Shown piece by piece: positions 1,320 to 49,880 of a stretch of DNA of 64,000 nucleotides. The notes beneath the pieces were generated by a model. That model saw only the letters and a list, made by a program, of their open reading frames with translations, made no database searches and was not told where the DNA came from. The position numbers were made by a program, and so were the translations under genes. The stretch's first letter is position 1. Each line of letters begins with the position of its first letter. Origin of the DNA: Citrifermentans bremense (GTDB lineage: Bacteria > Desulfobacterota > Desulfuromonadia > Geobacterales > Geobacteraceae); the NCBI RefSeq assembly GCF_014218275.1, contig NZ_AP023213.1, positions 4,026,954-4,090,953 on the forward strand, in the 5' to 3' direction.

Positions 1320-1396
1320 AAATCCCCCCTGCCCCCCTCCCGCCTTCGCGGACCGAAGCGCTACGGCGCGCAGAGCTGTCGCAAAGGGGGGAACGT
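1320..1396. repeat. C6/G6 intergenic hairpin element with a loop insertion
   Basis: The left arm (C-runs at 1323-1340) and right arm (GCAAAGGGGGGAACG, 1381-1395) match the compact element at 5770-5806. Here about 38 extra bases sit in the loop, and these contain their own small hairpin CTTCG-CGGAC-CGAAG. The element lies between nikR and tadA. No coding potential is seen. Confidence 0.7.
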
Positions 1397-1469
1397 AATT
1401 GCACCGTTCGCAGGGGGCGCGATAGCCGCGCCTTGGGAAAGTGCCATTGTTGGCGGAGATTCTTGCTCG

Positions 1470-1889
1470 TCAGTGCAGCCCTTCTCCGGTGGTGGTCATG
1501 ACCAGCTTGCCATGCTTCACTCCCTTGACACCTATCAGCTCGTCGGCAATCCTGCGCACGTCTCGCGCCTTGCCACGCACCACCAGCACTTCGAGACAGT
1601 TGTGGGCGTCGAGATGGACGTGCAGCGCGGATATGATCTGGTCGTGATACGCGTGCTGGTGCTCGGTCAGCTTGTCGGAAAGATCGCGGACGTGGTGGTT
1701 GTAGACGAGGGTCACGGTGCCGACCCCTTCCTTTTCCCCTTCCTCCCAGTCGAGCTCCACCTGAGCCGCTCGGATCAGGTCGCGGATCGCCTCGGAGCGG
1801 TTGGCGTAACCTTTCTGCTCGATGAGCCTGTCGAAGCTCTCCAGCAACTGGTCGTCCATGGAGATGCCAAACCTTACTGTCTCACCCAT
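1470..1889 (-). CDS. nikR: Nickel-responsive regulator NikR family
   Basis: This is a ribbon-helix-helix repressor with a C-terminal ACT-like nickel-binding domain, 139 aa as is typical. Residues 1-50 ([20 protein letters not shown]...) form the DNA-binding part. The nickel site [11 protein letters not shown] carries the expected two His and one Cys, and an upstream His cluster (EHQHAYHD) supplies the fourth ligand. The ATG at 1889 has GGAGAGG about 5 nt upstream; an open frame 26 codons longer lacks support. No nickel transporter gene lies nearby, so its targets are probably elsewhere. The larB/larC nickel-cofactor genes are 18 kb away. Confidence 0.93.
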
Positions 1890-1962
1890 ACATACCTCTC
1901 CTTCCCCAAAAGGTGCCCCACTATACGTGAAACAGCTTCCGGAGTCAAAAACCGTAAGGCGG

Positions 1963-2043
1963 AACACAGAGGTCTCGGAGGTACACGGAGGACACGGAGG
2001 TTTTGTTTTTCCTCTGTGACCCTCTGTGTCCTCTGTGGTGAAC
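1963..2043. repeat. CACAGAGG-word imperfect palindrome
   Basis: The left arm (1965-2000) is built from CACAGAGG, CTCGGAGG and CACGGAGG words. The right arm (2011-2042) is their complement (CCTCTGTG units). They are separated by a T-rich loop. Other copies of the same word family occur at 43305-43334 and 49731-49880. The element sits between nikR and the SDR gene. Confidence 0.8.
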
Positions 2044-2059
2044 GATTTGGGGTTTTATA

Positions 2060-2947
2060 CTAGGGCTTGAGGTAGCTGCGGATGCCAGGTTCGAGGCGGG
2101 TCGGTTGGAAGGTGAACACCCTGCGCCAGCCGCCGTCACAGATGTTACCTTGAACCAGCATGGTGATCTGGTCGGAGGTGACGGGGAAGAAGGGAAAGCC
2201 CTCGAAAAGCGGCACCACCATGCGCATCAGCGCCAGCGGATTCTTGATTTTAAGCACACGGCTCTTTCCCATAACCCGCCCTATGGTGTCGAGGAGCTCG
2301 TTGTAGCTCAACCGGTCGGTGCCGCAGAGCTCGAAGGTCTCGCCTATGGTCTCCGGCTTCTCCAGGGCCTCGGCGAAGCAGCGCGCCACGTCGTCCCCGG
2401 CTATGGGCTGCAGCTGGTATTCGCCGTCGCCTATGACCGGCATGGCCGGCAAGACCCTGAGGAGTCCGGCCAGCTGGTTGATGAAGTCGTCTTTCGGACC
2501 GAAGATGATGGAGGGACGGAAGATGGTGTAGTCGAGGCCGGAGGCGCGCACCGCCTCTTCCGCCTCGAACTTGCTTTGGAAATATCGTGCTTCGCTGTTG
2601 GCGCGGGTGCCGAGGGCGGACATCTGGAGGTGGCGCTTGACGCCGTTTTTCTCCGCAGCCTGGAGGATGTTGCGGGTGGCTTCGACGTGAAGCCGCTGAA
2701 AGGTGATGCCGCGCCCGGGGAATTCGCGGATGATGCCGATCAGGTTGATGGTGGCGTCGCATCCCTTGACGGCGTCGACCAGGCTCTCGGCAACGGTTGC
2801 GTCACCCTCGATCTCCTCTATGCCGGCGACCTTTTCGCCCGCCCCTTTGCGGTGCACCAAAAGCCGTATGCTGTGGCCGCGTTGAAGCAGGGCCTGTCTC
2901 ACGTGCCCCCCCACAAAGCCGGTTCCGCCGGCCAGAAATACTCTCAT
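2060..2947 (-). CDS. NDUFA9-like atypical SDR / NAD(P)-binding protein
   Basis: The N-terminal Rossmann motif GGTGFVGG is followed by an extended/atypical SDR fold of 295 aa. It resembles the complex I accessory subunit NDUFA9 (NmrA-like, atypical SDR5). Features include NLIGIIREF after the second strand, a YFQSKFEAEEAV segment in the position of the YxxxK pair, and FRPSIIFGP. The start has GGGAGGGG just upstream. The bacterial substrate is unknown. No NADH dehydrogenase genes lie nearby, so a complex I role cannot be inferred here. Confidence 0.85.
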   Translation of the reverse strand: MRVFLAGGTGFVGGHVRQALLQRGHSIRLLVHRKGAGEKVAGIEEIEGDATVAESLVDAVKGCDATINLIGIIREFPGRGITFQRLHVEATRNILQAAEKNGVKRHLQMSALGTRANSEARYFQSKFEAEEAVRASGLDYTIFRPSIIFGPKDDFINQLAGLLRVLPAMPVIGDGEYQLQPIAGDDVARCFAEALEKPETIGETFELCGTDRLSYNELLDTIGRVMGKSRVLKIKNPLALMRMVVPLFEGFPFFPVTSDQITMLVQGNICDGGWRRVFTFQPTRLEPGIRSYLKP

Positions 2948-3097
2948 AGCCCCTCCCTTTGAAGCCTTTTCCGCAGCCCCAAGTGTATCAAAAAGTTGTC
3001 CAAAACTCCATTGAGCGGCTTATCGTATACAAATACTTGTGCTCAAGTGCGTCTTGTGTTAAAAACCTTTCAAATCACACGCTAGAGGAGACGATCC

Positions 3098-3574
3098 ATG
3101 GCTGAACAGGGCGATGTTTGTTACACATTTGAAGCCGCTATAGATATGGCCACCAAAATGGAAGACGAGGGGTTCAGGGCTTACCTGTCCGCGCTTCGCA
3201 TAGTGAAGGACAAGGCAGCCCGCGAGATCTTCAAGGAAGCAGCGCTGGACGAACTTGAGCACAAACATCAGCTGGAAAAGACATTGATAGACGGCGAGAT
3301 GAAAGGGGGAGAGAGTCTGCACCAGCCGGTGCCGACCATGAACCTCGATTACGTGCTTGCCAAGCGCGAACTCCGCCCCGAATCCGACGCGCGCGAGGCG
3401 CTGGCCTACGCCATCCACCTGGAGAAAGGGTCGATCGACTTCTACCAGAGGATGTCCAAGGGGTGCGAAGGGGCTCCCATGTCGGCGCTCTTCAAGAAGA
3501 TGCTGGCTGACGAGTCGCGCCACCTGCAGGAGCTTGAGGACCTGTACGAGCGCCACTTCATGGCTGAGAACTAA
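3098..3574 (+). CDS. Ferritin-like (rubrerythrin-type) diiron protein
   Basis: The protein has 158 residues with the two-part glutamate/ExxH pattern of the rubrerythrin ferritin-like domain: a helix with MEDEGFRAYL, DELEHKHQLE, then LEKGSIDFYQRM and DESRHLQELEDLYE. There is no C-terminal rubredoxin CxxC module, so it is an erythrin-like protein rather than full rubrerythrin. Likely roles are peroxide reduction or iron handling in this anaerobe; the exact activity is inference. GAGGAGA lies before the ATG. It is monocistronic, followed by a strong terminator. Confidence 0.85.
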   Translation: MAEQGDVCYTFEAAIDMATKMEDEGFRAYLSALRIVKDKAAREIFKEAALDELEHKHQLEKTLIDGEMKGGESLHQPVPTMNLDYVLAKRELRPESDAREALAYAIHLEKGSIDFYQRMSKGCEGAPMSALFKKMLADESRHLQELEDLYERHFMAEN

Positions 3575-3602
3575 AAGTACTAAGCTGCTTACTTGAGGGA
3601 TG

Positions 3603-3638
3603 AAAAAACCCCTCCTCGTTGCCGGGGAGGGGTTTTTT
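3603..3638. terminator. Strong bidirectional terminator
   Basis: A perfect 13-bp stem (AAAAAACCCCTCC at 3603-3615 with GGAGGGGTTTTTT at 3626-3638) has a 10-nt loop. T-runs follow on both strands. It separates the converging ferritin-like gene and the FKBP gene. Confidence 0.9.
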
Positions 3639-3662
3639 GTGTCTAACGTGAACCGCCTGCCG

Positions 3663-4115
3663 CTAGAGGATTTCCACCAGCTTCAGCTCGAAGTTCAGGG
3701 GCTGGCCTGCCAGCGGGTGGTTGGCGTCGATGGAGATGGTTTCGTCGGTCACTTCGACCACCAGCACGCTGAACACCTGGCCGTCCTCCTGGGTCACCTC
3801 GAGCTGCTGCCCGACCTCAGGCTTCATGTCGGGGGGAAGATCGCCGCGGGGAACCACCGCAACCATCTCCTCGATCCTCTCGCCGTAGGCATCCGCAACC
3901 GGGATGTGTACGGTCTTGCTTTCGCCGACGGAGAGACCTTTTACCCCAGCCTCGAATCCAGGAATGACTTCCCCCTGTCCGATAGTGAACTCGATCGGGC
4001 CATGCCCGCAGCCGCAATCGTCCTCAGCGCATTCGGAGGAATCGAAAATGGAGCCGTCATCGAGCCTCCCTGTATAATGGACCTTTACGCGGTCCCCTTC
4101 TTTAGCCTGTGCCAT
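3663..4115 (-). CDS. SlyD-type FKBP peptidyl-prolyl isomerase
   Basis: This is a cytoplasmic FKBP-type prolyl isomerase/chaperone of 150 aa. The FKBP half (VKVHYTGRLDDGSIFDSS, then GQGEVIPGFEAGVKGL) is followed by the SlyD insert-in-flap domain and the hallmark end DANHPLAGQPLNFELKLVEI. The His-rich metal-binding tail of E. coli SlyD is absent. Instead, residues 29-39 form an acidic Cys/His insertion (CAEDDCGCGHG) inside the FKBP domain. GAGGTGG precedes the ATG. Confidence 0.92.
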   Translation of the reverse strand: MAQAKEGDRVKVHYTGRLDDGSIFDSSECAEDDCGCGHGPIEFTIGQGEVIPGFEAGVKGLSVGESKTVHIPVADAYGERIEEMVAVVPRGDLPPDMKPEVGQQLEVTQEDGQVFSVLVVEVTDETISIDANHPLAGQPLNFELKLVEIL

Positions 4116-4271
4116 AACGCCACCTCTTGATTATTTTGGACAACAAGTCATGAACGATAACAGACCGAAGGGCAATTATCCACACTAAATTTGCGGATAA
4201 ACCCGCGGATCTGTCCCTTCACGGCGAAAACGGGCCGTTTTTTAACGATTAGAGAACGTTAAGCATCACCT

Positions 4272-4307
4272 CCCCTGCAGCTCAAATTCCTTCACTTCCT
4301 GCAGGGG
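4272..4307. promoter_or_regulatory. Inverted repeat upstream of the NUDIX-rluA operon
   Basis: The repeat CCCCTGCAG (4272-4280) / CTGCAGGGG (4299-4307) has an 18-nt spacer and ends 27 nt before the NUDIX start. It could be an operator or a 5' leader hairpin. There is no T-run, so termination is unlikely. The function is not known. Confidence 0.35.
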
Positions 4308-4334
4308 AAATGGTATTTAACTTCGGGGGGTACT

Positions 4335-4856
4335 ATGGAGACAAAAAACAGGTCAGTGCTCTTCAACGGCTTGGTTGTGGGCATCGAACAGATGGACGTC
4401 TTGATCGGGGAGCAGGGGTGGTATACCTACCAGGTGGTGCGCCATCCGGGCGGGGCGGCGGTGTTGCCGCTGCACGCCGACGGCTCCGTGACGCTGATCA
4501 GGCAACTGCGCCCGGCGATAAACGACTTCCTGATGGAGATCCCCGCCGGCCGCCTCTCCAAGGGGGAGGACCCGGCGGCTTGCGCGACGCGCGAATTGAT
4601 CGAGGAGACCGGTTTGAGGGCCGACAAGTTCACCCCGCTCGGTATCCTGCATCCCTCGCCTGGGGTGTTCGACGAGGTGGTCCACCTCTATCTCGCCACA
4701 GGACTCGCAGAGGGGGAGGCGGAGCCTGAAGATTACGAGGATATCTCCAGCATCAGGATACCTCTCGCAAAGGCGCTGGAAATGGCGGCCGACGGGAGCA
4801 TCACTGACGGGAAGACGATAGCGGCGCTGCTGCGTGCGCAAAGGCATATTGGATGA
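4335..4856 (+). CDS. NUDIX hydrolase, ADP-ribose pyrophosphatase type
   Basis: The full NUDIX box Gx5Ex7REUxEExGU is present (GRLSKGEDPAACATRELIEE followed by TGL), about residues 76-98. A preceding RQLRPAINDFLMEIPAG segment is typical of ADP-ribose/nucleoside-diphosphate-sugar pyrophosphatases. The length is 173 aa. It is expected to cleave ADP-ribose to AMP and ribose-5-phosphate; the substrate is inferred from subfamily resemblance. The stop overlaps the rluA-family start by 4 nt, so the two are translationally coupled. Confidence 0.9.
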   Translation: METKNRSVLFNGLVVGIEQMDVLIGEQGWYTYQVVRHPGGAAVLPLHADGSVTLIRQLRPAINDFLMEIPAGRLSKGEDPAACATRELIEETGLRADKFTPLGILHPSPGVFDEVVHLYLATGLAEGEAEPEDYEDISSIRIPLAKALEMAADGSITDGKTIAALLRAQRHIG

Positions 4857-5746
4857 TACTGACAGCAAGGGTTGATGCAGAACTGGCAGGGACACGGCTG
4901 GACGATGCGGCGAAATCACTTTTTCCGCAGTATTCGAAGGGTGAGATCCGGCGCATCATCGACTGGGGGGGATGTTACCTCTCCCAGACGCTGGTGCGGG
5001 TAGCCTCGCGCACCGTGAAAGAGGGGGAAGAAATCGCCCTCGGCATCATGGAGGCTGAGCGCTGCATCGAGCTTGTCTATAAAAAGGAAGAGCTTCTCTA
5101 CGAGGACAAGGATTTCCTCGCAGTCTACAAGGCGGCAGGCTTCAACAGCCAGCGCACGCCGTACCAGCTGAAGGGGACGGTGGAGTACGCGGTGGAATGC
5201 TACATGAAGAGCATCGGGCTCAGGGATCCCTCGCGCGTGGTGCACAGGCTGGACCGCGGCACCAGCGGGGTGATGTTTTTCCCCAAGCACAAGCAGGCCG
5301 CGACCCTGATCTCCAACCTGCTCAAGGACGGGAAGGTGCAGAAGACCTACTGGGCGCTCGTTTCCGGTTCTCCGGACCAGCAGAACTGGAAGGTGGACGC
5401 GCCGCTTGGGAAGGTGAGCAAGTTCAAGTACGGTGTCGCCTTGAACGGGAAGCCTGCCAAGACGGTTTTCCGGGTAGTCGGCGAGGGGGCGGGGGTGGCC
5501 GCGGTCGAGGCGAAGCCCTTGACCGGGCGCACGCACCAGATCCGCGTGCACCTGGCCCACTCCGGATTCCCCATCATCGGTGACGAGGCCTACGGCGGCA
5601 TCCCTGCAGCAAGGATGATGCTGCACTGCCGCGGCATGCGCTTCACCAATGCGCGAGGGAAGGTGATCGAGGCGTTCGCCCCAATTGACGCAGAGTTCGA
5701 AGCGGCGGCAAGGGAAGGGATCTGGAAAGAGAGCGCGGAACCGTAG
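4853..5746 (+). CDS. RluA-family pseudouridine synthase
   Basis: This enzyme isomerises uridine to pseudouridine in rRNA or tRNA. The catalytic-loop motif HRLDRGTSGV contains the nucleophilic Asp. Downstream TGRTHQIRVHLAH and GDEAYGG are the conserved RluA-family motifs. An S4-like RNA-binding segment (TRLDDAAKSLFP...) occupies the N-terminus. The length is 297 aa. The target position cannot be assigned (RluA/C/D paralogues). A diverged copy of its last 20-25 codons lies downstream at 5821-5919. Confidence 0.92.
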   Translation: MILTARVDAELAGTRLDDAAKSLFPQYSKGEIRRIIDWGGCYLSQTLVRVASRTVKEGEEIALGIMEAERCIELVYKKEELLYEDKDFLAVYKAAGFNSQRTPYQLKGTVEYAVECYMKSIGLRDPSRVVHRLDRGTSGVMFFPKHKQAATLISNLLKDGKVQKTYWALVSGSPDQQNWKVDAPLGKVSKFKYGVALNGKPAKTVFRVVGEGAGVAAVEAKPLTGRTHQIRVHLAHSGFPIIGDEAYGGIPAARMMLHCRGMRFTNARGKVIEAFAPIDAEFEAAAREGIWKESAEP

Positions 5747-5769
5747 GGGAGAAATCCGCTTGCAAGGCA

Positions 5770-5806
5770 AATCCCCCCTGTCCCCCCTTCGCAAAGGGGG
5801 GAACGT
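5770..5806. repeat. Compact C6/G6 hairpin element
   Basis: The sequence TCCCCCCTTC-GCAAAGGGGGGA forms a strong hairpin, preceded by a second C6 run. It is the short form of the element at 1320-1396. It lies exactly between the rluA-family gene and the duplicated 3' fragment of that gene. Confidence 0.8.
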
Positions 5807-5820
5807 GAGTGCTCCTGCAG

Positions 5821-5919
5821 GACTTCGCCCCCATTGACTCCCTCTTCAGGGAGGCTGCATCTGAAGGGATCTGGGAGGAGAGCAGGATTGGTTCACATTT
5901 GAAGGAAGATCAACTATAG
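5821..5919 (+). pseudogene. Diverged duplicate of the 3' end of the RluA-family gene
   Basis: This stretch translates, without a start codon, to a 32-residue tail beginning DFAPIDSLFREAASEGIWEE and ends with TAG at 5917-5919. The true gene ends AFAPIDAEFEAAAREGIWKE. The two tails align over more than 20 residues, with clear nucleotide similarity. This is either a partial tandem duplication or the displaced original 3' end, with a C6/G6 repeat between the copies. The ribosome site of the next gene begins 1-2 nt after its stop. Confidence 0.75.
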
Positions 5920-5931
5920 CGGAGGTAGTGA

Positions 5932-6378
5932 ATGAAGAAGAAATTGCTCTTGTTATTGGTGCCGGCGGTTTTGATCATTGCCGGCGCGTTCGGGGTCTGG
6001 GCCAGCGAGAAGACCGCGACTCAGCCTGGGTGCAGCAAATGCGTGAAAGCCGAGAAAGCTCCGGCCCAAGTCCAGCCGGGTTGCGCGAAGTGCGCGAAAA
6101 CGAACGCTGCTGACGGGGAAGCCGCTGCGCCGTGCCCCAAATGCGCCAACTGCGCTAAGGCGGCGGACTGCCCGAAGACGCCGGATTGCCCGAATTGCCC
6201 GAAGGCGAACGGCGCCGATTTGAAAGCGGCACCGGGTTGCGCCAACTGCCCCAAGATGAAGGATGCAGCGGCAGTCCCCCCGGCTGGATGCGACAAGTGC
6301 GCGAAGCTGAAGCAGCCGGCGGAACAGCCTGCACAGAAGCCCTGCTGCAACAAGGGCAACAAGTACCAGCCGCTTTAA
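5932..6378 (+). CDS. Exported cysteine-rich CxxC-repeat protein
   Basis: The 148-aa protein starts with a clear signal peptide (MKKKLLLLLVPAVLIIAGAF, cut near WAS/EK). The mature part is low-complexity and rich in Ala, Pro, Lys and Cys. It has about eight CxxC-type units (GCSKC, GCAKC, PCPKCANC, DCPNCPK, GCANCPK, GCDKC) and ends with PCCNK. No CxxCH occurs, so it is not a c-type cytochrome. A periplasmic metal-binding or thiol-buffer role is plausible, but I do not recognise the family. GGAGG lies 7 nt before the ATG. Confidence 0.8.
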   Translation: MKKKLLLLLVPAVLIIAGAFGVWASEKTATQPGCSKCVKAEKAPAQVQPGCAKCAKTNAADGEAAAPCPKCANCAKAADCPKTPDCPNCPKANGADLKAAPGCANCPKMKDAAAVPPAGCDKCAKLKQPAEQPAQKPCCNKGNKYQPL

Positions 6379-6385
6379 CCAAGCT

Positions 6386-7066
6386 TCACGCCAGCGGCCA
6401 TTTGCTGGTGTGAGGATCAAACTCCGGCTCGGCAGCGGAGTCGGAACCGCCAACAAGGAGCGCCCGAACGGGCGCTCCGTCCCCGCCTTTCAGCTTCAGC
6501 GGCAGACAGATGAGCTGGTAGTGCCCCGCCTTGATCCCTTCCAGGTTCAACCCCTCGATCACAAGGATGCCGTCTTCCAGCAGCGTGCGGTGCACGTCCC
6601 CCTTGCCGTGGAACCCCTCGATGGAGAGATAGTCTATCCCCACGAGCCTTACCCCTGCATCGCGCAGGTACTGCGCGCCTTCCTTGCTGAGGGCTGCGTA
6701 CCCTTCGGAAAACTCTTTTTGCTGCCAGAGCTTCGAGTTGTCGGTCTTCAGCAGCAGCCGCTCTTCCCCTTCGATCCGGAATTTCTCCAGTTCCTGGCGC
6801 CCGATTTCCTTGGCCCCCAGGATCTCCAGCACCAGCGCCTTACCGATCACGGTTTCCAGCGCGATCTCGTCGACCGTGGTCCCGGCGTCGTCAAAATGAA
6901 AAGGGGCGTCCATGTGGGTGCCGCTGTGGCTTCCCATGCTGATGCGGGAGACGTTGGCGGAATCGCCTTGGGAGATGCGGCTGAAGGGTTCGATGTTGAT
7001 GCCGGGGTCGCCTGGGTAGATGGGGAGATCGCTGGAGAGGGAAACAGTAATGTCGTGGATTCGCAT
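6386..7066 (-). CDS. Cyclase-family metal-dependent hydrolase (kynurenine formamidase-like)
   Basis: The protein has 226 aa with the family signature HSGTHMDAPFHF (metal-binding HxxTHxDxPxHF pattern). LPIYPGDPGI is near the N-terminus and RLVGIDYLSIE is central. Members hydrolyse formamide or lactam-type bonds (KynB, isatin hydrolase). No tryptophan-degradation genes are adjacent, so the substrate is unknown. The ATG at 7066 is preceded by GGAGG at 5-nt spacing; the GTG at 7072 is less likely. It converges on the CxxC-protein gene with only 7 nt between stops. Confidence 0.88.
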   Translation of the reverse strand: MRIHDITVSLSSDLPIYPGDPGINIEPFSRISQGDSANVSRISMGSHSGTHMDAPFHFDDAGTTVDEIALETVIGKALVLEILGAKEIGRQELEKFRIEGEERLLLKTDNSKLWQQKEFSEGYAALSKEGAQYLRDAGVRLVGIDYLSIEGFHGKGDVHRTLLEDGILVIEGLNLEGIKAGHYQLICLPLKLKGGDGAPVRALLVGGSDSAAEPEFDPHTSKWPLA

Positions 7067-7081
7067 CGGCACCTCCGTCTG

Positions 7082-7258
7082 ACCAATTGACGATTGACAA
7101 TGGAAAGACTAGCTGATTATGCAACCCGCAAATTATAACAGGCCTTCGCGATGATGCTGCTACGGCCTGCAAGCACATTCGCGATAAAGCCGCTACTGTG
7201 TGCAGGCATACTTTCACATAACACCAATTGACGATTGACAATGGACAATTGACAACGG
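7082..7258. repeat. Compound repeat region: CAATTGAC words flanking a 33-bp tandem pair
   Basis: A 23-bp exact direct repeat (7082-7104 and 7223-7245) belongs to the CAATTGAC word family, extended at 7246-7254. Between the copies, two tandem 33-bp units (7143-7175 and 7176-7208) share about 25 of 33 positions and carry TTCGCGAT...GCTAC words, resembling REP-type sequences of other bacteria. This accounts for most of the 315-bp gap between the cyclase gene and hslO. No gene is seen here. Confidence 0.75.
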
Positions 7259-7381
7259 AAATCCAGGCAGCCAGAACAATCCGAAAAAAAAGGGGGGTGA
7301 CCGCATGCCTTTGTGACAGCGACCATCCCCTTGTTACTTGGAAAGTTCTGGCCTCCCTCAAGGGATAGACTATAACTTGAG

Positions 7382-8269
7382 CTACACTTCCTGCTTTTCT
7401 ATTTCGTTTAAGATCCGGTCGAGGTCGGACTCGTCGAAACGGTAACGCTCGCCACAGAACTCGCAGGTCACTTCGGTTCCGTGCTGCTCTTTCTTCATGG
7501 AGGTCAGCTCTTTGTTTCCCATGGAGAGAAGGACGCGCTCGATACGTTCGCGGCTGCAACTGCAGGCAAACCCTATGCTCCTCTTCTCCAGCACGTCGTA
7601 GGGTATCCCGGAAAGAAGCTGCTCCAGGATCTGTTCCGGCGTCCCCCCCTTGTGCAGCAGCTCGCTCAAAGGCGGCAGTTGTTCGATCCGCGTCATAAGC
7701 TCTTCGACCACCAGGGGATCGACCGGCGGCACGGCCTGGATCAGGAAACCTCCGGCTGCGGCGACGGTCCCATCCTGTTCGATGAACTCGGCGATCCCTA
7801 CGGCGGAAGGTATCTGCTCGCTTTCCACCAGATAGAGGGCCAGGTCCTCGGCGATGCCGCTGGTGTAGAGCTGCACGGTGCCGCGGTAAGGCTCTTTGAG
7901 CCCCAGGTCCTTGGCGACGGTGAGAAATCCGGCACGACCTAGCGCGTTGTTCACGTCCAGCGACCCGTCCGCCCGCAGCAGGTGGACCTTCGGGTCCCCG
8001 ACATAGCCGCGCACGCTGCCGTCGCTGTCTGCCTCGATGACGATCTTCTTGAGGGGGCCGTTCCCTTCGAAGCGCATCGCTACCCGCTGACCGGTCTTCA
8101 ACATGGCGCCCATGAGCGCGCCAGCGGTTATCCCTCTTCCCAGAGCCGCCGTGGCGGTGGGGAGGGTGTCGTGACGTTTGCATATCTCGCCGACGGTAGC
8201 GGCAGTGACACAGGCAAGGGCCCTTACGCTCCCGGATTTGGCTATCGCACGAACTAGATAATCGGTCAT
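7382..8269 (-). CDS. hslO: Redox-regulated chaperone Hsp33
   Basis: Hsp33 is a cytoplasmic holdase activated by oxidation and unfolding. The protein has 295 aa. The C-terminal zinc switch is intact: CSC (in [14 protein letters not shown]) and CEFC (in [12 protein letters not shown]), separated by about 30 residues. [14 protein letters not shown] and the N-terminal Hsp33 fold are present. The start ATG overlaps the stop of the upstream gene (ATGA), making it the third gene of an operon with the U32 protein and a hypothetical. Confidence 0.96.
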
Positions 8270-8820: not shown

Positions 8821-8822
8821 CT

Positions 8823-18350: not shown

Positions 18351-18392
18351 CACCCTCACTCCGACCCTCTCCCAGGGGGAGAGGGAGAATGG
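18351..18392. repeat. CCCTCTCCC/GGGAGAGGG hairpin element
   Basis: CCCTCTCCC (18365-18373) pairs with GGGAGAGGG just after it, preceded by a CCTCACTCCGA word. It lies between the SDR and importer genes, which are both on the minus strand. It could act as a weak terminator but lacks a T-run. Confidence 0.6.
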
Positions 18393-28064: not shown

Positions 28065-28169
28065 TAACAGGGATAAAAGGGATGAAGGGGATAATACGCA
28101 CGACGAAATGACAAAGAGGTGACTACAATCTTTTTGATTTTATCCCCTGTATCCCCTCAATCCCTGTTA
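28065..28169. repeat. AACAGGGAT-word hairpin upstream of alaS
   Basis: Two 30-nt arms (28065-28094 and 28140-28169) are inverted copies matching at 25 of 30 positions, with a 45-nt loop. Each arm is three slightly different CAGGGATAA/GGGGATAA words. A single arm of the same family is found in the glnE coding tail at 49237-49266. Confidence 0.9.
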
Positions 28170-30848: not shown

Positions 30849-30889
30849 AAAAATCCCCCCTCCTGACCTCCCCCCTCCGGGGGGAGGAA
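30849..30889 (+). repeat. C6/G6 hairpin element after alaS
   Basis: CCTCCCCCC (30867-30875) pairs with GGGGGGAGG (30879-30887) across a 3-nt loop, preceded by a second C6 run. It belongs to the C6/G6 family seen at 1320, 5770 and 39158. It may act as a terminator between alaS and the kinase gene, although the downstream tract is A/T-mixed. Confidence 0.75.
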
Positions 30890-34390: not shown

Positions 34391-34411
34391 GGTGCCGGCG
34401 AGGCCGGCACC
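34391..34411. repeat. GGTGCCGGC/GCCGGCACC hairpin between argD and argF
   Basis: A perfect 9-bp stem (34391-34399 with 34403-34411) has a 3-nt loop. No T-run follows, so it is more likely an mRNA-processing or stabilising hairpin than a terminator. Confidence 0.6.
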
Positions 34412-37277: not shown

Positions 37278-37306
37278 ATAGGGGCACGAAAGTTTCGTGC
37301 CCCTAT
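37278..37306. repeat. GGGGCACGAA hairpin between argG and the NUDIX gene
   Basis: A perfect 13-bp inverted repeat (37278-37290 with 37294-37306) has a 3-nt loop. It begins 3 nt after a perfect Shine-Dalgarno (AAGGAGGG, 37267-37274) and ends 10 nt before the NUDIX ATG. There is no T-run. Confidence 0.8.
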
Positions 37307-37316: not shown

Positions 37317-37769
37317 ATGGAGCAAAACGGATTCAAGACGAGCCATATCGTCACCTCGGTGGTAGCGGTCATCATCGACGCCGACGACCGGGTGCTCCTC
37401 ACCAAGCGCAACGTCCCGCCGTTCCAGGGGGAATGGGTGATGCCTGGCGGGAAGATCGACCTCGGGGAGCCGATCGTCGCCGCGCTCAAGCGCGAGGTGT
37501 GGGAGGAAGTGGGCCTGGAGGTGGAGGTGGGGGAGCTGATCGACGTCTTCGAGCACGTGACGCCCGGCGAGGACAACTATCACTTCATCATCATCTATTA
37601 CCGCTGCACCCCGCTTTACTGCGACGTGAAGCACAACCGGGACGAGGTGGCCGAGGCGCGCTGGGTAACCTGCGAGGAACTGGCGGAGTACAAAATCCCC
37701 GCCGGCGCCAGGTTCATTCTCGGAAAGACCTTTAAGATCACTTGTCAATTGACGCCCAAAGGCAATTGA
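37317..37769 (+). CDS. NUDIX hydrolase (MutT-like)
   Basis: The 150-aa protein has a complete NUDIX box (GGKIDLGEPIVAALKREVWE followed by EVGL). The substrate is not predictable. The ATG lacks an immediate ribosome site; the only strong one lies on the far side of a hairpin. The last 8 codons (CQLTPKGN) are read from a CAATTGACG repeat, so the repeat has replaced or extended the native C-terminus. Confidence 0.85.
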   Translation: MEQNGFKTSHIVTSVVAVIIDADDRVLLTKRNVPPFQGEWVMPGGKIDLGEPIVAALKREVWEEVGLEVEVGELIDVFEHVTPGEDNYHFIIIYYRCTPLYCDVKHNRDEVAEARWVTCEELAEYKIPAGARFILGKTFKITCQLTPKGN

Positions 37770-37985
37770 CGCCTAAAAGCAATTGACAATGTACAATTGA
37801 CGATTGACAACTGAAAGCCAATTACCGGCTACATTTGTCACTTGTCCATTCTCAACCGCTTGCAGTTCTTTGTCATTAGTCGGCAATGTTCAGGTTGACC
37901 ATTGTCAATTGTTAATCGTCAACTGTACATTGGTTTTAAGCTGCTGTTCGTTGTCAATTGTCAATTGTCAATCGTCAACTGGTTT
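37743..37985. repeat. Large CAATTGAC-word palindromic region
   Basis: The left part (37744-37820) carries at least five CAATTGAC-type words. The right part (37896-37982) carries their complements (GTCAATTGTTAATCGTCAAC, TGTCAATTGTCAATTGTCAA). About 75 nt lie between. It matches the words at 7082-7258. It overlaps the 3' end of the NUDIX gene and reaches to within about 15 nt of the next start codon. Confidence 0.88.
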
Positions 37986-37996
37986 ACGGGGTTAAA

Positions 37997-39157: not shown

Positions 39158-39186
39158 TCCCCCCTTCCCTTTGCGGGAGGGGGGAG
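39158..39186. repeat. C6/G6 hairpin element upstream of argH
   Basis: CCCCCCTTCCC (39159-39169) pairs with GGGAGGGGGG with one bulge across the loop TTTGC. It is a member of the C6/G6 family. It ends about 30 nt before the argH start codon. Confidence 0.75.
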
Positions 39187-39214
39187 CGATTCAAATCCAG
39201 CAGGAGAGTTAAAC

Positions 39215-40591: not shown

Positions 40592-40594
40592 CCG

Positions 40595-41365: not shown

Positions 41366-41429
41366 CCCCGTCTCCTTGCCTTTTTAAGAGGTTCATGATA
41401 ATAACCGGGGGCACGCATTAACCTTTTCC

Positions 41430-41450
41430 GGCGCCGTCTGGGCGCCTTTT
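41430..41450 (+). terminator. Short GGCGCC hairpin with T4 before gatC
   Basis: GGCGCC (41430-41435) and GGCGCC (41441-41446) pair across a 5-nt loop and are followed by four T. This is a weak terminator or attenuator candidate directly before the gatC ribosome site. Confidence 0.4.
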
Positions 41451-41459
41451 GGAGCGGTC

Positions 41460-41747: not shown

Positions 41748-41757
41748 AGGTAGTCTT

Positions 41758-41791
41758 GGTCCGACAGGTCGGACTGGTCGGACTGGTCCGA
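41758..41791. repeat. TCGGACTGG-word repeat between gatC and gatA
   Basis: Three GGTCSGAC/TCGGACTGG-type words are packed into 34 nt, with short self-complementarity (TCCGA/TCGGA). The element lies in the 80-nt gap between two genes whose products form one complex. Confidence 0.6.
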
Positions 41792-41827
41792 AAGCACCAC
41801 AAAAATGTGCAACACCGGAGTTTTGCA

Positions 41828-43285: not shown

Positions 43286-43304
43286 ATCCTCAATAAAAGG
43301 CACT

Positions 43305-43334
43305 CACCACAGAGGACACAGAGGTACACAGAGG
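43305..43334. repeat. Single-arm CACAGAGG repeat between gatA and gatB
   Basis: Three tandem CACAGAGG words with 2-nt variations are present. Only one arm exists here; no complementary arm lies within the 143-nt gatA-gatB gap. Confidence 0.75.
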
Positions 43335-43428
43335 AAAAGCTGAACAGAGAAGGCCGAACCTCGAAACTCCCCGCGTCCTTCCTGGCACATGCTTTTAATA
43401 GTTTTCGACTGCTTTGATCGGAGCGAAC

Positions 43429-44868
43429 ATGAAATATCAGGTCGTCATCGGGCTAGAGGTCCATACCCAGCTCACCACCAATACCAAGATCTTCTGCGGC
43501 TGCTCGACCCGCTTCGGCGCGGAGCCCAACTCCCAGACCTGCCCGGTCTGCCTCGGCTTCCCCGGCGCTCTTCCGGTTTTGAACCAGCAGGTGGTGGAAT
43601 ACGCCATCCGCGCCGGGCTCGCCACCAACTGCTCCATTACCCAAAGGAACGTCTTCGCCCGGAAGAACTACTTCTACCCGGACCTCCCCAAGGGTTACCA
43701 GATCAGCCAGTTCGACCTCCCCATCTGCCAGCACGGTCACCTGGACATCGAGGTGGAGGGGGAGACGAAGCGGATCGGGATAACCCGCATCCACATGGAG
43801 GAAGACGCCGGGAAGCTGGTGCACGCCGACATCCCCGGGGTGGACGACTCCTGTGTCGACCTGAACCGCGCCTGCACCCCGCTTCTGGAGATCGTCTCGG
43901 AACCTGACATGCGCTCCCCGGACGAGGCGATAGCCTACCTGAAGAAGCTGCACCAGATCGTCATGTACCTGGGGATCTGCGACGGGAACCTGGAGGAAGG
44001 GAGCTTCCGCTGCGACGCCAACGTCTCGCTGATGCCGGTCGGATCCACCGTCTTCGGCACCCGCGCGGAGCTTAAGAACATCAACTCCTTCAAGTTCATC
44101 AAGCAGGCGATCGAGTACGAGATCGAGCGCCAGGCCGAGATCCTCGACGACGGCGGCAAGGTGGTCCAGGAAACCCGCCTCTTCGACCCGAACACCGGCA
44201 CCACCCGCTCCATGCGCGGCAAGGAAGAGGCGCACGACTACCGCTACTTCCCGGACCCGGATCTCGTCCCGGTGATCATCTCGGACGACTGGATCGAGAA
44301 GGTGCGCGGCGGGCTCCCCGAGCTTCCCGAGGCGAAGCGCGCCCGCTTCATGTCGGATTTGGGGCTCCCCGAGTACGACGCCGAGGTACTGGTGGCAAGC
44401 CGGGAGCTGGCGCAGTACTTCGAGGACGCCTTCGCCCTTTTCCCGCAGGCGAAGACCGTCTCCAACTGGGTCATGGGTGAGGTCACCCGCGCCTTGAACG
44501 ACGACAACAACCGCTCCATCGCCGAGTGCCCGGTCACCTCGGCCCTCCTGGCCGACCTCCTGAAGCTCATGGAGAAGGGAACCATCTCCGGGAAGATCGC
44601 GAAGACCGTCTTCGACGAGATGTACAAGACCGGCAATGCGCCGGAGAAGATCGTCGAGGAGAAGGGGCTGGTGCAGGTCTCCGACACCGGGGCCATCGAG
44701 GCGATGATCGACGAGGTGCTGGAGAAGAACCCCGGGCAGGTGGCCGAGTACCGGGGAGGCAAGGAGACCCTTTTCGGCTTCTTCGTGGGGCAGGTGATGC
44801 GCGCCTCCAAAGGGAAGGCGAACCCCGCCGTCGTCAACGAGATGCTGCTCAAGAAGTTGCAGGGGTAA
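43429..44868 (+). CDS. gatB: Asp/Glu-tRNA amidotransferase subunit B
   Basis: The 479-aa kinase-like subunit activates Glu-tRNA(Gln) and Asp-tRNA(Asn) for amidation. [18 protein letters not shown] with zinc cysteines, CPVCLGFPG, and the C-terminal YqeY-like tail ([13 protein letters not shown]) are all present. The ATG at 43429 is preceded by GGAG at 5 nt. Confidence 0.97.
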
Positions 44869-44877
44869 AAAACAAGT

Positions 44878-45005
44878 CAAAGGCGTCGCACGCGGATCAG
44901 GCGGATGTTGCGGAAAAAGCACGGATAACCCATAAAGACTTTTTTTGGTTTGATCCGATTTTATCCGCGCCTTTTCCGTCAAATCCGTGTGCAAAAGCCT
45001 TTGGA
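44878..45005. repeat. GCGGAT-word hairpin between gatB and mtnA
   Basis: The left arm (44878-44931) and right arm (44948-45005) are imperfect complements: AAAGGCGTCGCACGCGGAT against ATCCGTGTGCAAAAGCCTTT at the base, and GGATAACC against GGTTTGATCC near the tip. A T7 run lies in the loop. It fills most of the 155-nt gap. Confidence 0.85.
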
Positions 45006-45023
45006 CTCTTTTCGAGGTAGACG

Positions 45024-46060
<1,037 letters not shown>

Positions 46061-46064
<4 letters not shown>

Positions 46065-49000
46065 GCCGCCGCTCGGATCTGGCCGGGGCGCTCCTCGCCG
46101 CGCTGTCGCAGCGCCAGGGGGGAGAGCTCGCGCAACTGCTCGAACAGGGGGGCTACAGCTACGGCGCCCGCTCCGTCGAGAACCTGCGCCTCTTGTCCGA
46201 AGTCCTCCCCGGCGAGCGGCTGATCGAGGTCGCCATCGCCGCCCTGTCGACCCCCCTTCCCGACATGGCCTTGAACGGCCTGGAGCGCATCAGCACCGCT
46301 GTCCCAAAGGAAACCCTCCTGGAGCTTTGCTCCCGCCGGGCGCTCCTCACCCAGTTGATGAACATCTGTGGTTCCTCCCCCTTCCTCACCAACCTCATCT
46401 GCCGCGACCCCTCCGCTCTGAAGCGGCTTTTTCTCGACCGCGAGATCATGCGCAGCCGCTCCGAGTCGGAGATGCTCGACACGTTGCGCAGCCGCGTCCC
46501 CGAAGGAACGGGGTACGCCGACCTCTTCGCGCACCTGCGCCGCTTCAAGTATGCCGAGATGCTGCGCATCGCGGCCCGCGACCTGAACGGGCTCTCCCCG
46601 CTGGAGGAGGTGACCGGAGAGCTCGCCTCCCTTGCCGCGGTCACGCTGCAACTCGCCTATGAGGCGGCCCTTGCCGAACTGGTCCGGGATCACGGCAAGC
46701 CGATGCAGACCACCCCCGAGGGCGAGGTCGAGGCCGAGTTCACCATCATCGGCATGGGGAAGCTCGGCGGACGGGAACTAAACTTCTCCTCCGACATCGA
46801 CCTGATCTACTTCTACTCCTCCGACAAGGGGGAGAGCACCGGCATTCCCGACGGCAGGGGGGGCTTCAAGGGAAAGCTCTCCCTGCACTCCTTCTTCGTC
46901 AAGCTCGCCGAGATGGTGAGCCGCGCCATCTCGCAGGTGACCGAGGACGGCTTCGTCTTCCGGGTCGACATGGGGCTGCGCCCTGACGGCAAAGCCGGCG
47001 ACCTGGCGACCTCGATGCGCTCGGCGGAGGTGTACTACGAGTCATGGGGGCAGTCCTGGGAGCGCGCCGCCATGATGAAGGCGCGCCCGGTGGCTGGATC
47101 CATCGAACTCGGGCAGGCGATACTCGCCGCCCTCACCCCCTTCATCTACCGCCGCTACCTCGACTACAACCTGATCGAAGACATGATGGCGATGAAGAAG
47201 AAGATCGACGCCTCGCTGGCAAGGAGCCAGGAGGGGGAGGTCAACATTAAGCTCGGACGCGGCGGCATCCGCGAGATCGAGTTCTTTATCCAGGCGCTGC
47301 AGCTGGTTTATGCCGGGAAAAATCCGAGCCTGCGCGTGAAGAACTCCCTTGCCGCTCTGCAGACACTCAGGCAGTCCCGCATCATCAAGGAGGCGGACTG
47401 CGTCGCCCTCTCCGACGCCTACCGCTTCCTGCGCACGGTCGAGCACCGGATACAGGTGGTCCAGGAGCGCCAGACCCACGCCCTGCCCAGAAAGGAAGAG
47501 GAATTCGTGGCGCTCGCCAGGCGCTGCGGCTACCTGCGAAAGGACGGGCTGCTCCGCTTCAAGGAGACCCTGGAGCTGCACCGGCATGCCGTCTCCGCCA
47601 TCTACGGCGACCTCTTCCTCTCCCGCGACGAAAAGATCAAGGAGGAGGTGCACCCCGAGGTGCACTACTTCTTCGATCACAACGCGGACCCCGACCTGAT
47701 CAAGGACATGCTGGAGGAGCGGCGCTTCGAGAACCCGGACGTCGCCTACGACAACCTCCTGGTGCTGCGCGACGGCCCGGCCAAGGTGAACCTCACCAGC
47801 CAGGGGCGCCGCACGCTGGAGAAGATCGCCCCGCTCTTTTTGCAGGAGGTATTCGCGGCGCCCGACCCGGACCTCGCCCTCGCCAACCTGGAGCGCTTCC
47901 TTGCCTCCACGAGGACCCGGGCCTCGATCTACGCGCTTCTTGCAGAAAACCGCGACATACTGAAGCTCCTCACCTCGCTGTTCGGGATGTCGGAGTTCCT
48001 TTCCAAGATCTTCATCGGGCACCCGGAACTGTTGGACAGCATGACCACGCGGGGCTACGCCTACCTGCAGAAGGAGCGCGCCGCCATGGCCCACGAGCTG
48101 GATCTGTTCCTGACCCAGGCGGACGATTTCGAGGAGCAGCTCGACGCCATGAGGAGCTACCGGCACGAGGAGTTCCTGCGTATCGGCATGAACGACATCC
48201 ACGGCAAGATGAAGCAGCCCGAGGTGGCACGGCAACTGACGGACCTGGCCGACGTCTGCCTGGCCGCGGCATGCTGCCTTGCCACCGGCGAGCTCGCCCG
48301 CTTCGGGCGCCCGATGGTGAAGGACGAGGACGGCTCCGAGCGCGAGGCGGCTTTCGCCGTCGTGGCCATGGGGAAACTCGGGGGCTTCGAGCTCAACTAC
48401 CACTCCGACCTCGACATCATCTACATCTACGAGGGGCAGGGTTACACCGATGGGGAGAAGAGCATCACCAACCGCGAGTACTTCTCCAAGCTGGGGCAGA
48501 AGATCATACTGGTGCTCACCAGCCAGACCCGCGAGGGGTACGCCTACAAGATAGACACCCGGCTGCGCCCGTCCGGCAACGCGGGGCCGCTGGTCACGTC
48601 GCTGGAGGCGTTCCAGGGGTACCACGAGGCCGAGGCGCAGATCTGGGAGCGCCAGGCGCTGACCAAGGCACGGGTGACCTACGGCGACCCTGAGCTCAAG
48701 CGTAAGATCGAGGGGATCATCGAGAATACCGTGTACGGCGCCGGCGCCGACGACACGGTCCGCAGCGAGATCCACCGGCTGCGCATGCGCATGGAGAACG
48801 AGCTCGCCAAGGAGACCAGCGGGAGCTACAACATCAAGACCGGCCGCGGCGGGATGGTGGACGTCGAGTTCATCATCCAGTTCCTGCAGCTGAAGCACGG
48901 GCACGAGCACCTGGAGATCCGCAGCACCAGCACCTTGCGCGCCATGAATGCGATGCAAGAGCTGGGGATACTTCCCGACAGCGACTACCACGCCCTCTTC

Positions 49001-49294
49001 GACGGCTACAAGTTCCTGCGCCGCCTGGAGAACCGCCTGCGGATCATCCATGACTACTCGATGAACGACCTGGGGGGGCCGCTCAAGTACCTGAACAAGC
49101 TGGCCAGGAGGCTCGGCTACGACCCGATGCTGAAAAACCCGGGGGAGGCGCTCATGGCCGACTACGAGCGCGTGACAGGCGCGGTCAGGGACGTGTACGA
49201 GAGGATCCTCGGTGGCGTGGAAAGCCCAAAAGCGGCTAACAGGGATGAAGGGGATGCAGGGGATAAGGCCGAACCGCAAAGCCCGAACATCTGA
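46061..49294 (+). CDS. glnE: Bifunctional glutamine synthetase adenylyltransferase/deadenylase
   Basis: GlnE adjusts glutamine synthetase activity in response to PII. The 1077-aa protein has two nucleotidyltransferase domains: [20 protein letters not shown] (deadenylase half) and [20 protein letters not shown] (adenylylase half). Each is followed by a helical GlnD-like domain. The conserved part ends near VYERILGG. The following tail ([15 protein letters not shown]...) is encoded by an intergenic-type repeat arm at 49237-49266. Confidence 0.96.
49237..49266. repeat. AACAGGGAT repeat arm inside the glnE coding tail
   Basis: This 30-nt unit matches the left arm of the alaS-upstream hairpin (28065-28094) at 27 of 30 positions. 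It is read in frame as about ten residues of the GlnE C-terminus. No second arm is present. Confidence 0.85.
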
Positions 49295-49310
49295 CTATTC
49301 TGGAGGACCG

Positions 49311-49712
49311 ATGGAAGTACGGATTTATTACGAGGACACCGATGCGGGTGGGGTGGTGTACCACTCCAACTACATAAGCTACATGGAGCGCGCGAGGACT
49401 GAATTCCTGAGAAAGCACGGCCTGTCGGTTAGGGAGATGCACGACATGGGGATCATCTTCCCGGTGGTGTCGATAGAGGCTAACTTCCGGGCGCCGGCAC
49501 GGCTCGACGACCTCCTGGAAGTGCGGACACAGATCGCGGCGCTGAAGAACAGCTCCTTCACCGCCGCGCAGCAGGTGGTGAGAAAAGATGACGGGAAGCT
49601 CCTGGTCGAGGCGAAGGTGACGCTTGCCTGTGTCAACCCGGAGATGAAGCCCAGGCGCCTGCCGCAGGAGATCCGCGACCTCTTCAGCTCGCTGATGAAT
49701 GAAACCCCTTAA
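49311..49712 (+). CDS. ybgC: YbgC-type acyl-CoA thioesterase
   Basis: This hotdog-fold thioesterase has 133 aa, with YYEDTDAGGVVYHSNYISYMERARTEFLR carrying the conserved Asp and His/Tyr of the family. GGAGG precedes the ATG at 49311 by 6 nt. In many bacteria ybgC precedes tol-pal genes; none follows here. Confidence 0.93.
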   Translation: MEVRIYYEDTDAGGVVYHSNYISYMERARTEFLRKHGLSVREMHDMGIIFPVVSIEANFRAPARLDDLLEVRTQIAALKNSSFTAAQQVVRKDDGKLLVEAKVTLACVNPEMKPRRLPQEIRDLFSSLMNETP

Positions 49713-49730
49713 AACCAAAAACAAAGCATT

Positions 49731-49880
49731 ACCACAGAGGTCACAGAGGTTCACTGGGGAAAACAAAAAAGAGGAAAAGCAAAAACCGGAAGGCTTTTTG
49801 GGTTTAAACCCTAGAGCCTTCCGGTTTTGTTTTTTCCTCTGTGAGATCCCCTGTGCCCTCTGTGACCTCTGTGGCGAAGA
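49731..49880. repeat. 150-nt CACAGAGG-family hairpin between ybgC and lspA
   Basis: This is a nearly symmetric palindrome centred on GGTTTAAACC (49801-49810). The outer arms are CCACAGAGGTCACAGAGG and its complement. The inner stem is CCGGAAGGCT/AGCCTTCCGG, with A-rich/T-rich stretches between. The genes on either side converge on it, so it may also end transcription from both directions. Confidence 0.92.

What the first reader, a model, noticed from the sequence alone, without database searches (positions are those of the whole stretch)
1320..49880. At least ten families of word-built intergenic repeats, most of them palindromic
The gaps at 1320, 1963, 5770, 7082, 11261, 18351, 25126, 28065, 30849, 33062, 34391, 37278, 37743, 39158, 41758, 43305, 44878 and 49731 hold repeats each built from one short word (7-12 nt) and, in most cases, its complement, forming hairpins from 30 to about 240 nt. 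The words differ between families but the architecture is shared. They lie only between genes or at gene ends, often inside operons (gatC-gatA, gatA-gatB, argB-argD, argD-argF), and carry no transposase gene. This suggests a common mechanism that generates or spreads them independently of sequence, for example template switching or a REP-type transposase acting in trans. The function is unknown.
Basis: partly seen in the sequence, partly recalled or inferred. Interest (0 to 1): 0.75.

Follow-up and report, generated by a model that had tools for sequence, protein, structure and literature searches.

The report
Word-armed mobile elements between genes
The short repeated-word hairpins between genes look like the leftover, gene-less copies of small mobile elements found across many bacterial phyla, whose complete copies carry one tiny gene (a nuclease-like or a four-helix-bundle protein) between two arms of the same word.

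Summary
The repeats are real, but mixed. Ten of the 18 listed gaps carry word arrays; five are G/C-run hairpins, two simple hairpins, one unsure. In the same genome the same words flank small genes: a GxxExxY protein (PF13366, PD-(D/E)XK nuclease fold) between 8-10-nt words, or a four-helix-bundle/S23 protein (PF05635) between 6-7-nt words. Inverted arms flank 98 of 112 distinct GxxExxY and 45 of 53 S23 proteins examined, against 7 of 110 real-gene controls, and recur in other phyla. Word and protein lineage go together, even between phyla (0 of 2000 permutations). At one orthologous site a coding CACAGAGG element in two species is a bare word-pair hairpin in the window's genome; at another, protein and word were exchanged together. 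Best reading: gene-less relatives of intervening-sequence-like mobile elements. Movement by the encoded protein is inferred, not shown. A Y1/REP enzyme is not supported by what I tested. The library searches I made (open papers, mostly listings) showed no link between these genes and such repeats.

The parts
1963..2044 (.). CACAGAGG-word hairpin, both arms, no gene (GxxExxY class)
   Evidence: z -5.7; same word as coding elements at site C
7083..7260 (+). two direct copies of CAATTGACGATTGACAATGG words (S23 class), not inverted
   Evidence: cognate coding element L324
11261..11333 (+). direct GGGGCTA/GGGGCTG heptamer array, one arm only (S23 class)
   Evidence: cognate coding element L322
25120..25315 (.). 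GTTCAAC-word element, both arms (S23 class)
   Evidence: coding kin L323, L353
28065..28169 (.). AACAGGGATAAAAGGGAT-word hairpin, both arms (GxxExxY class)
   Evidence: coding kin in relatives L381, L412, L508, L511, L513, L519, L522, L524
33062..33172 (.).
37743..37995 (.). CAATTGAC-word element, several arms in both orientations (S23 class)
   Evidence: coding kin L324
43305..43334 (+). single CACAGAGG arm in the gatA-gatB gap (GxxExxY class); other words in sister species
44888..44992 (.). GCGGAT/ATCCGCG-word hairpin after gatB, both arms (GxxExxY class)
   Evidence: coding element L321 in the same genome
49731..49876 (.). CACAGAGG-word hairpin with a second inner palindrome (GxxExxY class)
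   Evidence: (z -12.6)
41758..41791 (+). GGTCGGACT short array before gatA, kin unsure
   Evidence: similar arrays beside larger four-helix-bundle-like genes L325, L326
1320..1392 (.). G/C-run hairpin (AATCCCCCC...GGGGGGAA), not part of the word elements
5770..5803 (.). G/C-run hairpin, not part of the word elements
18351..18385 (.). CCCTCTCCC hairpin, not part of the word elements
30849..30887 (.). G/C-run hairpin, not part of the word elements
39158..39186 (.). G/C-run hairpin, not part of the word elements
34391..34411 (.). simple palindrome GGTGCCGGCGAGGCCGGCACC, shared with the two nearest relatives
37278..37306 (.). simple hairpin at a gene end, present in all 18 genomes in which the gap was extracted; terminator-like

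Best explanation
The word-built repeats are gene-less or decayed members of two related classes of small mobile elements. A complete element is one short gene between two inverted arms; each arm is a degenerate array of one word. Class 1 (words of about 7 nt plus a 1-3 nt spacer) carries a GxxExxY protein with a PD-(D/E)XK nuclease fold. Class 2 (6-7 nt words) carries a four-helix-bundle S23 protein of the family found in 23S rRNA intervening sequences and distantly like Avd of diversity-generating retroelements. Each word lineage tends to travel with its own protein lineage across phyla. Shown here: the gene-plus-arms anatomy, the word/protein coupling, one orthologous site where a coding element elsewhere is a bare word-pair hairpin here, and exchange of a whole element at one site. 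Inferred: the encoded protein recognises its word hairpin as DNA or RNA; the class 1 nuclease cuts there, and repair copies another word-armed copy into the gap, spreading arms with or without the gene (homing-like); hairpin arms are tolerated between genes because the stem ends up as an RNase III-type substrate in the mRNA, as in rRNA intervening sequences; arms vary through slippage; loss of the gene leaves the hairpins seen in the window.
For: Own genome: its one GxxExxY gene lies between GCGGAT word hairpins; its three S23 genes over the Pfam cut-off lie between GGGGCTA, GTTCAAA/GTTCTAA and CAATTGAC words, the words of window gaps 44878, 11261/33062, 25126 and 7082/37743. Inverted flanks (score >=13.5) at 111 of 125 GxxExxY and 51 of 59 S23 locus hits, i.e. 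98 of 112 and 45 of 53 distinct proteins. Controls: 3 of 146 mechanical ORFs in relatives, 4 of 199 in other phyla, 7 of 110 real genes in the repeat-rich arg-gat region. Other phyla: 44 of 52 distinct GxxExxY, 24 of 28 scored S23. Coupling: Mantel r 0.44 (85 GxxExxY) and 0.59 (40 S23), 0 of 2000 permutations each; between phyla only, permuting within phylum, r 0.43, 0 of 2000; tree, 33 label changes against a shuffled mean of 51.2, 0 of 200 as low. Site C: coding in G014 and G007, word-pair hairpin in G000; site B: protein subfamily and word exchanged together. Same gap, different words in sister genomes. GxxExxY model: pLDDT 94.7, nearest solved folds Cas4, LHK-Exo, lambda exonuclease; D68, E78, K80, Q92 invariant in 10 of 10. 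Within the genus, 9 genomes in which I saw a CGCAAAG-type GxxExxY have a median of 115 CGCAAAG word sites, the other 10 a median of 12.5 (p 0.0019; grouping made by hand; counts; test).
Against: No movement, binding or cutting was observed. No target-site duplication was seen, and the boundaries of empty sites are not sharp. The CACAGAGG word count does not follow presence of its gene (p 0.14): this genome has 35 CACAGAGG sites but its only GxxExxY is of the GCGGAT kind. A class-wide word skeleton is not secure once one element per distinct word is kept (2 of 40 nulls as high for GxxExxY, 18 of 40 for S23). On the tree the CACGGAG, CACGAAA, CGCAGAT and CACGAAT labels taken singly are not clustered at all, and 47 of 82 inner branches are unresolved. 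Half of the nearest protein pairs do not share a word by my score (42 of 85 and 21 of 40 do; random 12% and 6.5%). 14 of 112 GxxExxY and 8 of 53 S23 proteins lack clear arms. Coupling could come from simple co-inheritance in one element without recognition. Site C does not tell whether the gene was lost in G000 or gained elsewhere. No solved structure matches the GxxExxY model at E 0.001 or below, nor its sequence (best E 0.071).
Confidence: 0.7

Rival explanations
1. The small genes are passengers: word hairpins arise and spread by some other route, and GxxExxY/S23 genes happen to land in these tolerant sites.
For: All copies in the window lack a gene; the S23 and GxxExxY proteins have no proven mobility role; in one IVS study the S23 protein appears not to be made in vivo (PMC4990558, abstract and passages).
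Against: Arms flank 143 of 165 distinct proteins of both families against 7 of 110 real-gene controls; protein lineage predicts word across phyla; protein and word exchanged together at site B.
Confidence: 0.15
2. REP/RAYT-like spread: a Y1 (TnpA-REP) transposase moves the word hairpins in trans.
For: Three Y1_Tnp genes exist in the genome; hairpins at gene ends resemble REPs in position.
Against: The flanks of the three Y1 genes carry GGGGTCAG...TTGAATT ends and no window word arrays by eye. Two other gene families carry the words instead. Y1 genes of the other genomes were not examined.
Confidence: 0.04
3. Local origin: slippage builds word arrays and template switching at forks makes the inverted arm; no mobility.
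For: Arm copy number varies; a tandem duplication occurs in one sister gap (G003).
Against: The same words occur in many phyla and up to 127 times in one genome, and tend to stay with a protein lineage. Slippage may still shape arm length.
Confidence: 0.05
4. Functional regulatory sites (for example IHF/HU or other global regulator sites), kept by selection.
For: Proposed for multicopy sequences of G. metallireducens (PMC2700814, passages).
Against: The same gap in sister species holds different words or nothing; conserved regulation would hardly tolerate this. Coding copies exist.
Confidence: 0.06

Closest known systems
23S rRNA intervening sequences (IVS) with an S23 ORF
   Same: Small element, inverted complementary ends forming a long stem, one ORF of the four-helix-bundle S23 family, scattered distribution, mobility suspected but unproven (PMC4990558, abstract and passages).
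   Different: Here the elements lie between protein genes, arms are arrays of a repeated word, the window's copies have no gene, and a second class carries GxxExxY instead of S23.
Multicopy nucleotide sequences of Geobacter bemidjiensis and G. metallireducens
   Same: Same bacterial group; palindromic and 6-42-nt direct-repeat families in 12% of intergenic regions of G. bemidjiensis; heptanucleotide elements in G. metallireducens (PMC2996986, PMC2700814, passages).
   Different: In the passages I read they are listed and read as regulators or left open; no gene partner named.
REP/BIME with RAYT (TnpA-REP)
   Same: Short palindromes between genes, at gene ends, high copy.
   Different: No Y1 partner found for these words in the own genome; word arrays rather than one fixed hairpin; partners are PD-(D/E)XK or four-helix-bundle proteins.
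MITEs
   Same: Short inverted-repeat elements without a gene, related to coding elements.
   Different: No target-site duplication seen; no classical transposase; ends are degenerate word arrays.
Diversity-generating retroelement Avd protein
   Same: Resembles the S23 family in sequence and structure (PMC10053308, passages); weak Avd model hit for L322 (20.8 bits).
   Different: Far below the Avd cut-off of 80 bits; reverse transcriptase neighbours were not searched for.

Membership tests
23S rRNA IVS elements | ORF of the S23/four-helix-bundle family | tested here: met
   PF05635 and TIGR02436 hits for L322-L324; solved structures 2gsc and 2rld match L322. Class 2 only; class 1 has GxxExxY instead
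23S rRNA IVS elements | complementary ends forming a long stem | tested here: met
   inverted flanks at 45 of 53 distinct S23 proteins in relatives and 24 of 28 scored in other phyla
23S rRNA IVS elements | location inside 23S rRNA | tested here: not met
   window copies lie between protein genes; no Rfam match in the 11 S23 loci searched, mostly weak-armed ones; the other S23 loci were not searched for rRNA
23S rRNA IVS elements | excision from the transcript by RNase III | not testable with these tools
   needs RNA experiments; strong stems predicted for the two-armed stretches folded
REP/RAYT | Y1 transposase gene flanked by the same repeats | tested here: not met
   3 Y1 genes in the own genome, flanks without window word arrays by eye; not tested in other genomes
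REP/RAYT | GTAG/CGTC-type tetranucleotide at the end of a 20-40 nt palindrome | not tested
   known only from the title and start of the abstract in a search listing (PMC3733652)
MITE | terminal inverted repeats shared with a coding element | tested here: met
   same words in coding and gene-less copies
MITE | target-site duplication | tested here: inconclusive
   none seen by eye at site C or in the arg-gat gaps; no strain-level empty sites were at hand
PD-(D/E)XK nucleases (GxxExxY) | fold and D...ExK active site | tested here: met
   (Foldseek probability 1.00 to Cas4, but E 2.8e-3)
PD-(D/E)XK nucleases (GxxExxY) | nuclease activity | not testable with these tools
DGR Avd | equivalog-level Avd score | tested here: not met
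   20.8 bits against a cut-off of 80 for L322; no hit listed for L323, L324
DGR Avd | reverse transcriptase next to Avd | not tested
   no search for a reverse transcriptase was made

The most novel reading that the evidence does not exclude
A pan-bacterial class of transposable element not yet described: hairpin arms written in a short word that serves as the address, each word read by its own small protein (a GxxExxY PD-(D/E)XK nuclease or an S23 four-helix bundle), with gene-less copies moved in trans and 23S rRNA intervening sequences as one special case. Many 'unexplained intergenic repeats' of bacteria would then be one phenomenon.
Probability: 0.45. Interest if true: 0.92.

Novelty: new variant of a known kind. 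Interest (0 to 1): 0.8.

Why it matters
It gives families of intergenic repeats, noted in Geobacter genomes in 2009-2010 and present in many phyla, a gene partner and a testable mechanism. It offers a first role for two widespread protein families without a known one (GxxExxY; four-helix-bundle S23), links rRNA intervening sequences to ordinary intergenic repeats, and suggests a matched word/protein code in very small mobile DNA.

Tried and rejected
Y1/REP transposase as the mover: 3 genes, different ends. Class-wide word skeleton: looked strong on 97 GxxExxY and 45 S23 elements (9.5 bits against null max 6.29; 6.0 against 4.79) but mostly lost when one element per distinct word was kept, so not claimed. 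Strict period test for GxxExxY arms failed because the spacer varies (1 of 111 armed loci passed; S23: 18 of 51, 13 of them at 7). S23 inside rRNA: no Rfam match in 11 loci. Cognate-gene dosage holds for CGCAAAG, not for CACAGAG; G003 was counted as lacking a CGCAAAG-type gene although one of its GxxExxY genes has that word on one side. Six of the 18 gaps (1320, 1963, 5770, 7082, 11261, 18351) could not be compared between species: their anchors did not pair in the stretches fetched. Orthologous sites for four coding elements were not found in the stretches I guessed; one of them (L401) was placed later as part of site B. 'In ORF' flags are not usable: the greedy ORF caller picks long antisense frames in this GC-rich DNA. 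The same caller made the mechanical controls, so (real genes) is the better control. Same-class preference of sites (15 of 21 family pairs; 6 of 252 label assignments as high) rests on word lists made after looking, and is only suggestive.

Selection and rows dropped: in relatives, 134 PF13366 and 148 PF05635 matches were listed (sums, fragments and weak ones included); I fetched mainly the best-scoring ones, giving 60 distinct GxxExxY and 53 S23 proteins in the arm counts; the 18 GxxExxY loci came later and are not in those counts (16 of these 18 reach 13.5 in a like test). Hits under 80% model coverage or with flanks under 60 nt were dropped (187 to 184 hits); identical proteins merged, proteins without arms and those 80% alike or more left out of the coupling tests (85 and 40 kept); 2 of 30 S23 loci of other phyla unscored. 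Of the 11 CACAGAGG stretches in which a GxxExxY gene was found, 10 were scored and 9 have CACAGAGG arms.

Full report
What is there. The window is bases 4,026,954-4,090,953 of a 4,458,493-base single-contig genome. Its genus includes a genome whose length matches Geobacter bemidjiensis as I recall it (G014, 4,615,150) and one with a contig of the same length as a Geomonas silvestris record (G015, 407,537), so it is a Geomonas/Citrifermentans-type bacterium by inference. Of the 18 listed gaps, ten carry word arrays (1963, 7082, 11261, 25126, 28065, 33062, 37743, 43305, 44878, 49731). Five carry G/C-run hairpins, two simple hairpins, and one (41758) a short array of unsure kin. Seven of the ten are two-armed; 7082 and 11261 are direct only and 43305 has one arm. 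The words are above chance; five two-armed stretches and part of a sixth were folded and fold strongly, one-armed 43305 and 11261 do not.

Same gap, different words. I fetched the arg-gat region from 20 relatives and upstream parts from 9 of them; 12 of the 18 gaps could be compared. In the gatA-gatB gap, 21 genomes including the own one hold CACAGAG words (4), TCTGAGAA words (9), G/C-run hairpins (5) or none called (3). In the gap after gatB (20 genomes): GCGGAT (4), CGCAAAG (6), GGGATAAA (2), GGGGCTA (1), CACAGAG (1), G/C-run (1), none called (5). In argB-argD (19): GTTCAAC (7), GTTCTAC (6), GGGGCTA (3), G/C-run (1), none called (2) (word lists made after looking; sequences). The pair G001/G011, 95.6% alike over this region, differs by a whole CACAGAG element in gatA-gatB (166 against 27 nt). 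The hairpin at 37278 is there in all 18 genomes in which the gap was extracted, so not every listed gap behaves this way.

Words across bacteria. In the 80 stretches printed it often sits in a hairpin with reversed words, by eye, and sometimes with another word family nested inside (L138, L092).

The gene partner. Eleven of the 120 stretches hold a GxxExxY gene. In the window's own genome the single GxxExxY gene (PF13366) lies between GCGGAT word hairpins, and the three four-helix-bundle S23 genes over the cut-off (PF05635) lie between GGGGCTA, GTTCAAA/GTTCTAA and CAATTGAC words. Relatives carry these genes widely: S23 in 49 of 58, GxxExxY in 50 of 58 genomes. Scoring the inverted match between the two flanks of the genes fetched gave arms at 111 of 125 GxxExxY and 51 of 59 S23 locus hits; counting distinct proteins, 98 of 112 and 45 of 53. 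A first version on the 30 and 32 best loci gave 27 of 30 and 22 of 32 above the 99th percentile of its controls. Among other phyla, 44 of 52 distinct GxxExxY and 24 of 28 scored S23 have arms. Controls reached the same score in 3 of 146 and 4 of 199 mechanical ORFs and 7 of 110 real genes of the repeat-rich arg-gat region.

Word and protein go together. Pairs of GxxExxY proteins 60-80% alike share a word in 52% of cases, those under 40% in under 1%. Mantel r is 0.44 (GxxExxY, 85 proteins) and 0.59 (S23, 40 proteins), 0 of 2000 permutations each. Restricted to pairs from different phyla and permuted within phylum, r is 0.43, 0 of 2000. On a quick tree of 85 proteins the word labels together need 33 changes against a shuffled mean of 51.2, and phylum labels 36; CACAGAG, CGCAAAG, CRCGGAT, TCTGAG and GGGATAA are clustered, CACGGAG, CACGAAA, CGCAGAT and CACGAAT are not, and many forks are unresolved. 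Such coupling shows that word and protein form one inherited unit; it does not by itself prove recognition.

Orthologous sites. Site C: G014 and G007 carry a GxxExxY gene between CACAGAGG arms; the window's genome has at that place only CACCACAGAGG-CTA-CCTCTGTGGT, a bare word pair. Site B: G007, G012 and G014 have a GxxExxY gene with CGCAAAG words; G003 has, between the same two genes, a GxxExxY of another clade with GGGATAA words. Site A: G000, G006 and G003 have the gene with GCGGAT words (decayed arms in G003, score 12.5); G014 has a GTCTGAC mini-array. At two S23 sites (L408/L417 and L414/L415) the alignments run through the element in both genomes, so these copies have stayed.

The proteins. 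NCBI's models name GxxExxY and 'four helix bundle protein'. The GxxExxY model (pLDDT 94.7) resembles Cas4, LHK-Exo and lambda exonuclease (no match reaches E 0.001), with D68, E78, K80 and Q92 invariant in 10 of 10. S23 is the family of 23S rRNA intervening sequences (PMC4990558, abstract and passages) and resembles the Avd protein of diversity-generating retroelements (PMC10053308, passages); the Avd score of L322 is far under its cut-off.

Mechanism. Shown: anatomy, coupling, turnover, coding and gene-less forms at one site. Inferred: the protein reads its word hairpin; the nuclease class cuts, and repair from another word-armed copy spreads the arms with or without the gene; arms stay harmless in transcripts as RNase III-type stems, as in rRNA intervening sequences. 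Against: no target duplication, no observed movement, CACAGAGG copy number does not follow its gene, no secure class-wide word skeleton.

Known or new. Aklujkar and colleagues listed multicopy palindromic and short direct-repeat sequences in 12% of G. bemidjiensis intergenic regions and left their meaning open (PMC2996986, passages), and read some in G. metallireducens as regulator sites (PMC2700814, passages). In the open library the term GxxExxY occurs in 2 papers, one checked by passage and unrelated, the other seen in the listing only; PF13366/PDDEXK_3/TIGR04256 in 1, listing only; the word strings in 3 papers with unrelated titles, listing only. A search pairing S23 and GxxExxY terms found 0 papers. 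Two searches on S23/four-helix-bundle elements between genes showed nothing on this in the rows listed (12 of 372 and 20 of 21 papers, none opened but PMC10053308), and one on 23S intervening sequences listed 12 of 31, of which I opened one. Subscription papers are not covered, so absence in print is not shown.

Noticed in passing
L009-L011 (own genome C1:1403148-1405255 and 1545867): Three Y1_Tnp genes with ends GGGGTCAGGTC or GGGGCAGAGGGGTCAGAG ... TTGAATT, two of them near each other with partial duplicated pieces between; a CCCTCTCCC-type hairpin lies near the one in L009.
   Followed up: partly
window 1320, 5770, 18351, 30849, 39158 and sister gaps: G/C-run hairpins (AATCCCCCC...GGGGGGAA; CCCTCTCCC) occupy the same gaps as word elements in sister species; their partner gene is unknown.
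   Followed up: no
sister gaps at 28065, 30849, 49731 (G002, G003, G005, G010, G012): A GGGGACTGGCTCCG...GGTGCCTGTCCCC palindrome family, absent from the window's own copies of these gaps.
   Followed up: no
L325, L326 (own genome): Larger genes with a weak S23-type match beside or running into GGTCCACTGG and TGACCTGTC arrays, possible kin of the 41758 array.
   Followed up: no
G010:C10:40919-42535 and G002:C3:39901-41570: S23 and GxxExxY genes next to each other, as if elements pile up at one place.
   Followed up: no
L138, L092: In Bacteroides records one word element is nested inside another of a different word.
   Followed up: no
G003 gap after gatB: The GCGGAT element core is duplicated in tandem; the gap is 117 nt longer than in G002.
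   Followed up: no
   Followed up: partly
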